Source: Streptomyces antibioticus (GTDB lineage: Bacteria > Actinomycetota > Actinomycetes > Streptomycetales > Streptomycetaceae). Taken from it: 64,000 nt of DNA. The stretch covers positions 1,064,314 to 1,128,313 of the forward strand of contig NZ_KQ948423.1 in the NCBI RefSeq assembly GCF_001514065.1, in the 5' to 3' direction. Shown piece after piece: positions 7,039-10,589 of the stretch (its first letter is position 1; every line of letters starts with the position of its first letter). The position numbers and the translations under genes are program-made. The notes under the pieces are model-generated. The model saw nothing but the letters and a program-made list of their open reading frames with translations, made no database searches and had not been told where the DNA came from.

Positions 7039-8208
7039 CTACGACTCGGGGGCGAGCCCGCTCAGCACGGTCTCCGCCCGTTCCAGCACCTGCGCGTCGG
7101 CCTCCAGGTCCGGGGTGATGCCCTTGCCGTCGACGCCCCGGCCGGAGGGGGTGCGGTAGTGGCCGACGGTCAGCTCGGCGACCGACCCGTCGGGCAGCCG
7201 GCTCGGCATCTGCACCGAGCCCTTGCCGAAGGTCCGGGAGCCCACGACCACGGCCCGGCCCCGGTCCTGCAAGGCGCCCGTGAGCAGTTCGGCCGCGCTC
7301 ATGGTGCCGCCGTCGACGAGTGCGACGAGGGGGCTGGTGGTGTCGCCGCCGGGGTCGGCGTGCAGGACCTGCTGCTCGCCGTCGACGTCGTAGGTGGCGA
7401 CGAGACCGCCGTCGAGGAAGGCGGAGGCGGCGGTGACGGCCTCGGTGACGAGTCCGCCGGAGTTGCCGCGCAGGTCGAGGACGATCCCGGCACCGGCGGG
7501 CGCCTGCCGCACGGCGGTCCGCACGACGTCACCCGAGCCCTTCGTAAAGGAGTCGATCTTGATGACGGTGATCCCGTCGGCGAGCCTGCGCACGGTGACC
7601 GAGTCGGTGGACAGCCGCGCGCGCCGCAGGGTCTCGGTCCACACGCGCGTACCGCGCTCAAGGCCGAGGGTGACGGCCGTCCCGGCGGCCGCGTCCTTGG
7701 CGTCACCGCGCAGTAAGGAGACGACCTCGGTGACGGGCCGGCCCCCGACATCGGCCCCGTCGACACTGCGCAACAGGTCCCCGGAGCGAATCCCGGCCCC
7801 GGCGGCGGGCGACCCGGCCCGTACCTTGGTCACCTCGATCCGGCCGTCCCGCTCCCGCCGCGCCCACAGCCCGACGCCGGTGTACTCACCGTCGAGGGCC
7901 TCCTCGAACTCCTCGTACTCCCCGCGGGAGTACACCGCCCCCCACCGGTCCCCGCTACGGCTGACGGCCCGCTCGGCGGCCTCCATGGGCGACTTGCCGT
8001 CGGCCATGGCCTCCTCGGCGGCCTTCGCCACGTCCTGGTGATGTCCGGCGGGCGCGGCCGAACGGGCCGCGTCGGGCGGGGATTTCCGGTCGGGCCCCGG
8101 CAACGACCCCGTCGCCGCCCCCGCGACCAGCACACTCGCGAACACCAACGTCAGAGCCGCCCCGCGGCCGATACGGCGGGGCTGACAGAACAGCTCACGG
8201 CCTGACAT
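7039..8208 (-). CDS. ctpA: Exported PDZ-domain S41 (C-terminal processing) protease
   Basis: 389 residues. S41 proteases use a Ser-Lys dyad to degrade or mature exported proteins. An N-terminal hydrophobic segment (GAALTLVFASVLVAGAATG) acts as signal or anchor, followed by a PDZ domain (VTKVRAGSPAAGAGIRSGD) and the S41 core (GIVLDLRGNSGG). Catalytic Ser304 is in TMSAAELL and Lys329 in TFGKGSVQ, with the 25-residue spacing usual for the family. The ATG at 8208 precedes the signal sequence; 160 upstream in-frame codons look non-coding. Codon 165 (plus-strand 7714-7716) is TTA, the only in-frame TTA I found in the window, suggesting dependence on the bldA tRNA. A TnpB element lies between this gene and ftsX. 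Confidence 0.88.
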   Translation of the reverse strand: MSGRELFCQPRRIGRGAALTLVFASVLVAGAATGSLPGPDRKSPPDAARSAAPAGHHQDVAKAAEEAMADGKSPMEAAERAVSRSGDRWGAVYSRGEYEEFEEALDGEYTGVGLWARRERDGRIEVTKVRAGSPAAGAGIRSGDLLRSVDGADVGGRPVTEVVSLLRGDAKDAAAGTAVTLGLERGTRVWTETLRRARLSTDSVTVRRLADGITVIKIDSFTKGSGDVVRTAVRQAPAGAGIVLDLRGNSGGLVTEAVTAASAFLDGGLVATYDVDGEQQVLHADPGGDTTSPLVALVDGGTMSAAELLTGALQDRGRAVVVGSRTFGKGSVQMPSRLPDGSVAELTVGHYRTPSGRGVDGKGITPDLEADAQVLERAETVLSGLAPES

Positions 8209-8427
8209 GCGGGTGAGTCTAGGACAACGCGAAGGGCCGCACGGTCGGTTGACCGGACGCCTCCCGTGGGATGCGTCACCGATGCATCTGGTGCAGGACG
8301 TGCCGAGATCGACAAGGGGCGAACGCCAGTGCCCACGCTCACCTCTTGGCGTGACGGTGGGGCGACAGAGTCCGGGCATTCGAGTTTCGTGCGTACGGTC
8401 GGAACAGTCGAGGCAGAGAACGGCAGG

Positions 8428-9636
8428 ATGCAGGGGGACGACTTGGTTGCCACAGCCGAAGCCAGGCACGTCCGGTACACCTACCGGCTGCGTGTCCCCC
8501 CGGGCGCACGGGCAGCGCTGCTGGCCGAGTGGGACCGCTGCCGATGGCTGTGGAACGAGTGCGTGTCGCGCTCGCAGAAGGCCTACCGCGACGGGCAGAA
8601 GTGCGGTCCGGCGCGTCTGGACAAGATGCTGACTCAGGCCCGCGCCATGACACCTTGGCTGGCCGCAGGCTCCTCCGTGCCCCAACAACAGCTCATCCGG
8701 GACTTCGGCGCGTCACGCGCGAAGGCTCTGAAGGACATCAAGGAGCGATTGTCCGCCGAGCGGCGGGCCGGGATGCCTCGGTACAAGAGGAAACGTGAGG
8801 CGGATCCGACGCTGAACTACACCCGCCGGGGATTCCGACTCAAGGACGGGCGGCTGCGTCTGGCGGGCGGGATCGCCGTCTCGGTTGTGTGGTCCCGGGA
8901 TCTGCCCGCGGAGCCGTCGAGTGTGCGGGTCTACCGGGACAGTGTCGGCCACTGGCACGCCTCGTTCGTCGTTCCCGCCGCACCCGAGCCGCTCGCTGCC
9001 ACCGGTGCGGTGATCGGTATCGACTGGGGCGTGCGGGAGATCGCGACGACCACCTCGGACGCCCACGACCTCCCGCACTCCGAGTTCGGCGAGAAGACCA
9101 GGGAGAGGCTGACCCGTTACGACCGAATGATGGGCCGCCGCGAACCGAAGAAGGGCCAGGCCGCCTCCAAGGGGTACCGCCGAGCGAAGCAGTGGCGGGC
9201 GAAGACCCACCAGAAGATCGCCCGGCAGCGGCGCGACCGTGCTCGCAAGTGGGCCAAGAAAGTCGTACGCGACCACGATGTGATCGCCGTGGAGGACTTC
9301 AAGCCGAGGTTCCTCTCCAGAACCACCATGGCCCGCAAAGCGGCCGACGCCGCGATCGGTGCCACCAAGCAGGCCCTGCTGGAGATGGGCCGCAAACACG
9401 CACGGGACGTACGACTTGTCCATCCCGCGCACACCACCATGGACTGCGGCAAGTGCGGAGCGAGAGCCAAGCACGCCCTGCCACTGTCGGAACGCACCTA
9501 CACCTGCACCGCGTGCGGGCTTGTGTCCCCCAGAGACAAGAACTCCGCGCGCGTGATGCTCGTCCGGGCAGGTCTGAACCCGGCTGGTGACGACGGCGTA
9601 GGACCTCCCGGAGCGCCGCTCCGGGAGGCGGCCTGA
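8428..9636 (+). CDS. tnpB: TnpB, RNA-guided RuvC nuclease of an IS605-type element
   Basis: About 402 residues. TnpB proteins are omegaRNA-guided DNA endonucleases ancestral to Cas12 and help retain the transposon at its donor site. The split RuvC site looks intact: D199 in IGIDWG, E289 in VIAVEDFK and D370 in SPRDKNSARV. A zinc ribbon with two CxxC pairs (CGKCGARA and CTACG) lies between the last two acidic residues. The N-terminus shows the family opening YTYRLRVPPG and WLWNECVSRS. The start is ATG 8428 or, with a better ribosome site (GGGGGAC), TTG 8443; in-frame codons upstream to 8266 do not resemble TnpB. It lies opposite to the flanking ftsX and ctpA genes. Its C-terminal codons overlap the presumed omegaRNA. 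Confidence 0.9.
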   Translation: MQGDDLVATAEARHVRYTYRLRVPPGARAALLAEWDRCRWLWNECVSRSQKAYRDGQKCGPARLDKMLTQARAMTPWLAAGSSVPQQQLIRDFGASRAKALKDIKERLSAERRAGMPRYKRKREADPTLNYTRRGFRLKDGRLRLAGGIAVSVVWSRDLPAEPSSVRVYRDSVGHWHASFVVPAAPEPLAATGAVIGIDWGVREIATTTSDAHDLPHSEFGEKTRERLTRYDRMMGRREPKKGQAASKGYRRAKQWRAKTHQKIARQRRDRARKWAKKVVRDHDVIAVEDFKPRFLSRTTMARKAADAAIGATKQALLEMGRKHARDVRLVHPAHTTMDCGKCGARAKHALPLSERTYTCTACGLVSPRDKNSARVMLVRAGLNPAGDDGVGPPGAPLREAA

Positions 9637-9675
9637 GCCAGGAATCCCCTCCCTTCGCGGGAGGGGAGCGGTCAA
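9560..9675 (+). ncRNA. Putative omegaRNA (reRNA) scaffold at the right end of the TnpB element
   Basis: Two strong hairpins occur here: an 11-bp stem with a 3-nt loop at 9604-9628, overlapping the last tnpB codons, and an 8-bp stem with loop TTCGC at 9646-9666, followed by AGCGGTCAA. TnpB guide RNAs are known to span the 3' end of tnpB and end at the transposon boundary, with the flanking DNA supplying the guide. The 5' limit is a guess. The implied guide begins at 9676. Confidence 0.55.
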
Positions 9676-10589
9676 ACCTTGAGGTACTTGCGCAGCGCGA
9701 AGAACGCCGCCAGTGCCGGCATCAGCAGGCTGGTCGCGAGGATGAGCGGGAGCTTCGTCAGGACCGCGTCCCAGCCGATGAAGTTGATCAGGTTCAGCTT
9801 CTCGGACAGGGCCAGGCCGTGGTCGATGATGAAGTAACGCGAGACCACCAGGAACGCGCAGGCGACGCCGCCGCCGATCAGGCCGGCCACCGCGGCCTCC
9901 ATGATGAACGGGGCCTGGATGTAGAAGCCCGAGGCGCCGACCAGGCGCATGATGCCGGTCTCGCGCCGTCGGCTGAACGCGGAGACGCGCACGGTGTTGA
10001 CGATCAGCATCAGGGCGACGACCAGCATCAGGGCCATGACCGCGCGCGCGGCCCAGTTCATGCCGTTGAGGAGACCGAAGAGGTTGTCGAGGATGCCCTT
10101 CTGGTCCTGCACCGACTGCACGCCGTCCCGGCCGTCGAAGGCGGTCGCGACGACCTGGTACTTCTCCGGGTCCTTCAGCTTGATCCGGTACGACTCCTGC
10201 ATCTGGTCCGGCGTGAGGGAGGCCGCCAGCGGGGAGTCGCCGAACTGCTCCTTGTAGTGCTTGTACGCCTGGTCCTGGGACTCGTACGTGACCTTCTCGA
10301 CGACCGACATCTTGTCCAGGTCGGCGAGGATCTGCTTCTTCTGGTCGTCGGTCACGGCGCCCTTGGCGCAGTTGGGGTCGGACTCGGCGTCGCTCTTGTT
10401 GCAGAGGAAGACGGAGACGTTGACCTTGTCGTACCAGTAGCCCTTCATGGTGCTGACCTGGTCGCTCATCAGGAGCGAGGCGCCGAACAGGGCCAGCGAC
10501 AGGGCGACGGAGACGATGACGGCGAACGTCATCGTCAGGTTGCGGCGGAGACCGACACCGATCTCGGAGAGTACGAACTGGGCGCGCAT
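9672..10589 (-). CDS. ftsX: Cell-division ABC transporter permease FtsX
   Basis: 305 residues. FtsX is the membrane partner of FtsE; the complex activates peptidoglycan hydrolases at division or growth sites. Visible features are an N-terminal cytoplasmic stretch and TM1 (TFAVIVSVALSLALFGAS), an extracellular loop of about 125 residues with an NKSDAESDPNCAKG patch, then three further helices (AVMALMLVVALMLIV, AAVAGLIGGGVACAFLV, LILATSLLMPALAAFFAL). It starts 36 bp after ftsE. The last codons, before TGA, lie directly on the right end of the TnpB element, whose terminal TCAA supplies the stop. Confidence 0.94.
   Translation of the reverse strand: MRAQFVLSEIGVGLRRNLTMTFAVIVSVALSLALFGASLLMSDQVSTMKGYWYDKVNVSVFLCNKSDAESDPNCAKGAVTDDQKKQILADLDKMSVVEKVTYESQDQAYKHYKEQFGDSPLAASLTPDQMQESYRIKLKDPEKYQVVATAFDGRDGVQSVQDQKGILDNLFGLLNGMNWAARAVMALMLVVALMLIVNTVRVSAFSRRRETGIMRLVGASGFYIQAPFIMEAAVAGLIGGGVACAFLVVSRYFIIDHGLALSEKLNLINFIGWDAVLTKLPLILATSLLMPALAAFFALRKYLKV

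What the first reader, a model, noticed from the sequence alone, without database searches (positions are those of the whole stretch)
8428..9695. Intact solitary TnpB with readable omegaRNA end and an implied guide against the ftsX 3' end
The RuvC triad D199/E289/D370 and zinc ribbon look complete. The right end shows the layout of characterised TnpB guide scaffolds: a hairpin at 9646-9666, then AGCGGTCAA. If the boundary is 9675, the guide would begin ACCTTGAGGTACTTGCGC (9676-9693), which is the last codons of ftsX read antisense. Without tnpA the element cannot move alone, so it may be a domesticated or passively spread nuclease.
Basis: partly seen in the sequence, partly recalled or inferred. 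Interest (0 to 1): 0.75.

Follow-up and report, generated by a model that had tools for sequence, protein, structure and literature searches.

The report
TnpB nuclease stranded at ftsX stop
A transposon-derived RNA-guided DNA cutter in a Streptomyces chromosome has lost the left end that it would need to jump, yet its gene looks intact and conserved, and its built-in guide would point it at chromosomes that lack it.

Summary
Empty ctpA-ftsX sites in 23 same-genus relatives fix the insert at 8280-9675: it follows target motif TCAC, ends in TCAA, and is followed by ACCTTGAGGTACTTGC, the antisense 3' end of ftsX. RuvC residues D199/E289/D370 and four zinc-ribbon cysteines are present. Two guide-scaffold hairpins, one inside tnpB, covary across 58 sequences. 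The element supplies the ftsX stop codon, so FtsX is unchanged.

New point: 65 of 112 compared copies of this tnpB-only family have a recognisable left end; none of the six ftsX copies does. Four ftsX copies share one junction, explicable by deletion between GCGTCAC repeats. Loss of that end, rather than lack of an adjacent tnpA, should strand this copy.

Nevertheless tnpB stays under purifying selection: omega 0.25 and 0.19 in two pairs of such copies, against a median of 0.28 among end-bearing copies. The likeliest use is cleavage of ftsX alleles lacking the insert; cleavage was not testable here. At least two TnpB lineages occupy this exact site. A test for homing tracts failed its control.

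The parts
8276..8279 (+). TCAC target / transposon-associated motif left of the insert (GCGTCAC with 8273-8275)
   Evidence: Empty sites of 23 relatives; the same motif lies just before the left end of most other copies, read outside the model, and at a second site
8280..8427 (+). remaining leader of the element; the canonical left end with its hairpin (about 75 nt) is missing
   Evidence: Alignment with end-bearing copies; left-end model: no hit up to E 1; DNA fold no better than shuffles
8428..9636 (+). tnpB, 402 aa from ATG 8428 (possible TTG start at 8443); RuvC D199/E289/D370, zinc ribbon C340/C343/C360/C363
9604..9628 (+). 11-bp hairpin inside the tnpB 3' coding end, predicted part of the guide-RNA scaffold
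   Evidence: 9 of 11 pairs show changes on both sides in 58 sequences
9645..9667 (+). right-end hairpin (9 bp), scaffold and putative TnpA-binding palindrome
   Evidence: 8 of 9 pairs show changes on both sides; folds
9672..9675 (+). TCAA right end of the element; complement of 9672-9674 is the TGA stop of ftsX
   Evidence: right end recognised in 109 of 112 homologous loci
9676..9691 (+). predicted 16-nt guide ACCTTGAGGTACTTGC, antisense ftsX 3' end
   Evidence: boundary from empty sites; 16-nt length taken from ISDra2 (PMC8612924, passages); only match to motif plus guide within 3 mismatches in the own genome is this flank itself, with TCAA
9672..10589 (-). ftsX; last codon GTG in empty relatives with TCAC, GTT here (both Val), stop supplied by the element
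   Evidence: (FtsX_actino 418 bits)
7039..8208 (-). S41 C-terminal processing peptidase (called ctpA here for short), left neighbour

Best explanation
This is a tnpB-only element of the IS200/IS605 (IS1341-like) kind that inserted 3' of a TCAC motif lying across the stop codon of ftsX (shown by empty sites). Its right end supplies the stop, so FtsX is unchanged (shown). Its left end was then lost, probably by slippage between two GCGTCAC repeats (inferred from sequence), so it should be unable to be excised or moved by a Y1 transposase in trans (inferred). TnpB and the guide-RNA scaffold are intact and under purifying selection (shown from sequence). Most likely mechanism: TnpB bound to an RNA made of the tnpB 3' end, right end and 16 nt of ftsX flank cuts ftsX alleles that lack the insert (TCAC-ACCTTSAGGTACTTGC), in DNA received by conjugation or in mixed chromosomes of multinucleoid hyphae. 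Repair then copies the insert in, or the empty chromosome is lost (all inferred). The resident allele is spared because it carries TCAA instead of TCAC (inferred). It thus persists like a homing nuclease at one address.
For: Boundaries and TCAC/TCAA rule at two sites. Catalytic residues present. Covarying scaffold. No left end in 6 of 6 ftsX copies; 65 of all 112 loci have one at E below 0.01. Omega 0.253 (0.184-0.34) for window vs S. canus and 0.187 (0.118-0.273) for L010 vs L075; median 0.283 over 1015 pairs (dS 0.15-0.75) of 57 of the 65 end-bearing copies. tnpB dS 0.43 close to ctpA 0.40. Same pairs of hosts in TnpB and flank trees. Target conserved: of 22 scored empty sites, 4 match the window guide exactly and 13 with one mismatch; 13 match the S. 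canus guide exactly. No complete Y1 TnpA found in 4 of 6 host genomes. TnpB-driven displacement of insert-free plasmids reported (PMC11870625, abstract and Discussion).
Against: No RNA or cleavage data. The test for shared haplotype tracts around occupied alleles (20/52 near vs 21/135 far, p 0.001) was matched by one of ten control comparisons between empty pairs (21/60 vs 10/93, p 0.0004), so it does not support homing. tnpB dS is two to three times that of ftsX, smpB and ftsE. The flank tree mildly rejects the four shared-junction hosts as one clade (p 0.039), so simple descent from one insertion needs losses or transfers. One ftsX-site copy (G334) has a premature stop. The site is rarely filled: 4 of 392 genomes. 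Left-end loss may have happened more than once, so not all divergence need postdate it.
Confidence: 0.55

Rival explanations
1. A decaying relic: the copy lost mobility and TnpB is intact only because too little time has passed.
For: Left end lost; a copy of another TnpB lineage at the same site, in G334, has a premature stop; tnpB and ctpA dS are similar, as for passive inheritance.
Against: Window and S. canus copies share the left junction and differ at dS 0.43 with omega 0.25; both branches show omega about 0.20-0.29 with four outgroups, one of which (L010) is itself an ftsX copy; omega is not higher than the median of end-bearing copies.
Confidence: 0.2
2. Still mobile: the shortened left end works, or the copy is moved by a Y1 TnpA elsewhere in the genome.
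For: The own genome has one complete Y1 TnpA match, with a related left-end hairpin beside it; related end-bearing copies lack tnpA too.
Against: No left-end model hit up to E 1 and no fold better than shuffles in any of four left ends (35 to 178 of 200 shuffles as good); single copy of this lineage in the genome, other TnpB matches being 34% identical or less; four of six hosts have no complete TnpA.
Confidence: 0.12
3. Domesticated host function: TnpB and its RNA were taken over for a task unrelated to the empty ftsX site, such as regulation of ftsX or defence against incoming DNA.
For: Purifying selection in copies that should be immobile; exaptation of TnpB relatives is known (PMC13418256, passages).
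Against: Nuclease residues intact, unlike TldR; the own genome holds no other match to TCAC plus guide with up to 3 mismatches; rare and patchy. A partner gene was not systematically searched for.
Confidence: 0.13

Closest known systems
IS1341 group of the IS200/IS605 family (tnpB only)
   Same: TnpB alone between IS200/IS605-type ends; about 1.4 kb (more than half of the IS1341 elements in PMC9956272 are 1252-1393 bp; passages); hairpin ends in the relatives
   Different: This copy lacks the left end and is kept at one site; the cited paper's introduction leaves open whether IS1341 elements are autonomous
ISDra2 TnpB-reRNA
   Same: Sequence family, RuvC residues, right-end RNA with about 16 nt of flank, target motif at the left junction (PMC8612924, passages; PDB 8bf8 and 8h1j, that these are ISDra2 is recalled)
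   Different: Motif TCAC instead of TTGAT; no tnpA in the element; activity not tested here
TnpB gene drive on plasmids
   Same: Would act on replicons lacking the insert (PMC11870625, abstract and Discussion)
   Different: Chromosomal, apparently unable to transpose; drive not shown here
TldR nuclease-dead TnpB repressors
   Same: TnpB relatives kept outside transposition (PMC13418256, passages)
   Different: Here the nuclease residues are intact

Membership tests
TnpB (OMEGA nuclease) | RuvC D-E-D and zinc ribbon in a TnpB-length protein | tested here: met
TnpB (OMEGA nuclease) | structured guide-RNA scaffold at the right end, ending at the flank | tested here: met
   predicted structure with covariation, boundary by empty sites; the RNA itself was not seen
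TnpB (OMEGA nuclease) | RNA-guided cleavage next to the target motif | not testable with these tools
   needs an experiment
IS200/IS605, IS1341 group | insertion 3' of a short motif without target duplication; right end with hairpin ending TCAA | tested here: met
IS200/IS605, IS1341 group | left end with subterminal hairpin | tested here: not met
   absent in this copy though found in 65 of 112 homologous loci: a derived, end-less descendant rather than a complete element
IS200/IS605, IS1341 group | no tnpA in the element | tested here: met
   PF01797 matches in the own genome lie on C1 and C4, none in the window on C2; none near the 112 homologous loci
IS607 | IS607-type TnpB with serine recombinase | tested here: inconclusive
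   IS607_TnpB scores 68 bits (cut-off 350) and IS200_TnpB 129 bits (cut-off 425), both below cut-off; a recombinase was not searched for; the single-sided TCAC/TCAA junction speaks against IS607
TldR | inactivated RuvC site | tested here: not met
   D199, E289, D370 present
homing-type selfish nuclease | spread of the occupied allele by recombination | tested here: inconclusive
   tract signal not specific

The most novel reading that the evidence does not exclude
A class of 'site-locked' TnpB: copies stripped of their transposon end that live on as RNA-guided homing nucleases at silent addresses (stop codons of conserved genes), kept by selection to attack insert-free chromosomes in multinucleoid, mating Streptomyces hyphae.
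Probability: 0.25. Interest if true: 0.75.

Novelty: new variant of a known kind. Interest (0 to 1): 0.5.

Why it matters
Why solitary tnpB genes are so common is an open question. Here is a natural case in which transposition and TnpB maintenance seem separated: the end needed for movement is gone, the guide target is known to the base, empty alleles exist in sequenced relatives, and selection on tnpB continues. That makes the question 'does TnpB pay its own way?' directly testable. The family also shows how an insert can be harmless: in 29 of 99 insertions an open frame (at least 60 codons, GC3 at least 0.8) ends exactly at the TCA that the element itself brings, against 9 and 10 in the other two frames.

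Tried and rejected
Rfam search of 8000-9900: no match up to E 1. Ad hoc hairpin finder for left ends: noisy, replaced by a profile. Its six seeds were chosen with TCAC, so the motif was re-read with a model lacking those letters: of 29 hits starting at the model's first three positions, 22 give TCAC directly (6 are seeds); among the 23 non-seeds, 18 are TCAC once two off-by-one hits (L072, L076) are counted; the rest are GCAC, CCAC, TTAC, TCAT and TCCC. All six ftsX copies as one clade: rejected (p-AU 2e-6); the four with the shared junction: not rejected (0.19); the hosts of the same four as one clade in the flank tree: p 0.039. Homing tract test: looked positive, failed its control. Stop-codon count: rows are distinct 30-nt flanks, so several species at one site can count separately (ftsX three times). 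Upstream CGTACGTA-like motif: 36 of 112, not pursued. Structure prediction not run, as sequence matches to solved TnpB were enough. Literature: the searches show no title or abstract start on an end-less TnpB copy kept under selection or on TnpB at ftsX in Streptomyces; each listing shows at most 20 papers (of 2 to 151 found), only an open-licence library was searched, and three wanted papers were not held. PMC10711439 and PMC8987985 were seen in passages only.

Full report
What is there. The ORF 8428-9636 encodes a 402-aa TnpB (NCBIfam guided_TnpB 221 bits, cut-off 100; Pfam OrfB_IS605 and Cas12f1-like_TNB). It aligns with solved TnpB chains 8h1j and 8bf8 (E about 2e-27; an AI-designed relative, 9yyg, scores best, 7e-32). 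D199, E289, D370 and C340/C343/C360/C363 are in place. In 99 aligned copies (window included) all seven positions are invariant except one D370N (of 112 loci, 13 were left out for under 370 aa or internal stops).

Boundaries. Of 24 same-genus relatives searched for the ftsX 3' region, 23 gave the site (L040-L062; G001, 79% complete, gave only an unrelated short match). None of the 23 has the element there. They read TCAC|ACCTT (20), TCAG (2) or TCAT (1). The window reads GCGTCAC|CGATG on the left and GCGGTCAA|ACCTT on the right. The insert is therefore 8280-9675; reading the junction elsewhere would require an extra substitution. A second, unrelated address gives the same rule: TCAC|AGCTTCTCC in 94 of 121 genomes (the pattern also allowed TCAT), TCAA|AGCTTCTCC in four filled loci (L014, L036, L074, L084, of which L014 and L074 have identical proteins and may be one strain). 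At ftsX the last codon changes from GTG to GTT (both Val) and the TGA comes from the element. At the second address CTG would become CTT (both Leu; read).

Family. 112 homologous loci were compared: the window's own, 29, 80 and 2. These are the best or kept hits of larger sets (one search found the family at E below 1e-100 in 96 of 295 genomes), and some may be one strain in two collections (L011/L144, L014/L074, L016/L081). A right end of the same form was recognised in 109; the other three are a contig end (L116), a variant end (L140) and one that the regular expression missed but that reads GTCAA (L084). No Y1 tnpA was found near any of the 112 using four TnpA proteins (69 loci had at least 2.9 kb on both sides; no positive control was put in that database). 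So the family looks tnpB-only. Of six Y1 TnpA places given to the left-end model, five (not L163) have a left-end-like hairpin, about 80-110 nt from tnpA (E 7.5e-5 in the own genome, 1.6e-6 to 4.6e-7 in the others); L002, beside the own-genome TnpA fragment, has none, and the fragment loci L150 and L161 were not given. This fits movement of end-bearing copies in trans, but the motifs before these ends are not clearly TCAC (TTAC in L160), so it remains inference.

Guide RNA. On 58 right-end sequences (57 homologues with a short right end plus the window), two helices were tested: 9604-9628 inside the coding end and 9645-9667. 94.8% of cells pair; 17 of 20 pairs have changes on both sides; 87 such cells against 16.0 in shuffles; 0 of 500 shuffles reach the observed values, and sliding the partners drops pairing to 52-62%. 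The sequences are related, so this is not a probability, but the slid controls share that relatedness. With the 16-nt guide length of ISDra2 (PMC8612924, passages), the guide is 9676-9691. In the own genome the only match to motif plus guide within three mismatches is the insert's own flank, with TCAA in place of TCAC. Whether TCAA protects it is not known.

The missing left end. End-bearing copies read, for example, TCAC|CTGGTCTCTTGCGAGGA..hairpin..AGGAATCGC.., then, about 75 nt in, GAGCGTCRCCG (not in every copy shown there). The four ftsX copies (window, S. canus L069, L010, S. xylophagus L075) read host GCGTCAC joined straight to the sequence that follows GCGTCRC inside other copies. They also share absence of an internal palindrome, which L116 lacks too. 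A profile of the left end hits 65 of 112 loci at E below 0.01 and none of the six ftsX copies even at E 1; 41 other loci also lack a hit at 0.01, so loss or divergence of this end is not unique to ftsX. As single-stranded DNA the four remaining left ends fold no better than shuffles (35 to 178 of 200 as good); the L012 left end does (5 of 200), that of L072 does not (66 of 200). A deletion between direct repeats explains the junction; because the repeats pre-exist, it could have happened more than once.

Selection and descent. Window vs S. canus: tnpB dS 0.43, dN 0.109, omega 0.253 (bootstrap 0.184-0.34); L010 vs L075: 0.187 (0.118-0.273). Neighbouring genes, window vs S. canus: dS ctpA 0.40, ftsX 0.21, smpB 0.21, ftsE 0.13. 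1015 pairs (dS 0.15-0.75) among 57 of the 65 end-bearing copies: median omega 0.283, quartiles 0.25 and 0.316. Assigning changes with four outgroups gives omega 0.22-0.29 on the window branch and 0.20-0.27 on the S. canus branch. So constraint has not visibly relaxed after loss of the end, if the loss is ancestral to each pair. TnpB and flank trees agree on three host pairs. The four shared-junction copies may be one insertion (p-AU 0.19), but all six are not (2e-6): L155/L156, with TnpB 67-71% identical to the window's, represent another arrival at the same base. G334 (L156) carries a premature stop. In 392 genus genomes a strict filled-site pattern found four (own, G068, G224, G334); L069 and L075 came. 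No Y1 match was found in G334, G224 and the L075 host; G068 has a 30-residue fragment; the S. canus host has two; the own genome has one complete match and a fragment (G224 is 88% complete, and the completeness of the L075 host is not told).

How it most likely works. TnpB plus its RNA should cut ftsX alleles without the insert. Because this copy should not be able to leave, the classical role (restoring the donor site after excision, PMC8612924, passages) should not apply; what remains is attack on insert-free alleles arriving from mates or neighbours, as reported for plasmids (PMC11870625, abstract and Discussion). That Streptomyces hyphae are multinucleoid and mate by conjugation is recalled knowledge and would supply the mixed state that such a drive needs. 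I looked for a recombination tract around occupied alleles: sites shared by the two occupied pairs are enriched within 480 nt (20 of 52 vs 21 of 135, p 0.001), with the cut-off chosen after seeing the data. Of ten comparisons between empty pairs one shows as strong a signal (21 of 60 vs 10 of 93, p 0.0004); none of the ten mixed occupied/empty comparisons does. I therefore do not count this as evidence.

Verdict. The element is a known kind (tnpB-only IS200/IS605) in an unusual state: without its left end, fixed at a silent address, and still selected. Function is the open part.

Noticed in passing
L011/L071/L144; L014/L036/L074; L016/L081; L070/L088; L079/L082/L134; L013/L137; L117/L129: Besides ftsX, seven further insertion addresses are shared by two or more loci (L084 and L019 added by eye); some sharers may be one strain held twice (L016/L081 have identical proteins). 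At four of the seven the right end supplies the stop of an antisense frame. At two (L013/L137 and L014/L036/L084) the occupants fall on different TnpB branches.
   Followed up: partly
99 distinct insertions among the 112 homologous loci: 29 right ends supply the stop codon of an open, GC3-rich reading frame on the other strand; 9 and 10 in the other two frames.
   Followed up: partly
L156 (G334): The ftsX-site copy of G334 has a premature stop in tnpB, while its sister copy in G224 has an open frame.
   Followed up: no
L120, L122, L124, L126, L130-L132, L138, L143, L147 and L112-L115, L118: Streptomyces sp. NBC_01446 carries at least 15 copies in two subfamilies, none with a Y1 tnpA found beside it: apparently a recently active tnpB-only family.
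   Followed up: no
one of 99 aligned TnpB proteins: A single homologue has D370N, a possible nuclease-dead copy; its locus was not identified.
   Followed up: no
window 8388-8400 and upstream of homologues: A motif like CGTGCGTACGGTC lies upstream of tnpB in 36 of 112 copies and the window sequence fits it; possible promoter or operator kept after loss of the left end.
   Followed up: no
L005, L008, L009 (own genome): The own genome has further, distant TnpB matches (30-34% identity); these three carry an in-frame TGA (L008 and L009 overlap).
   Followed up: no
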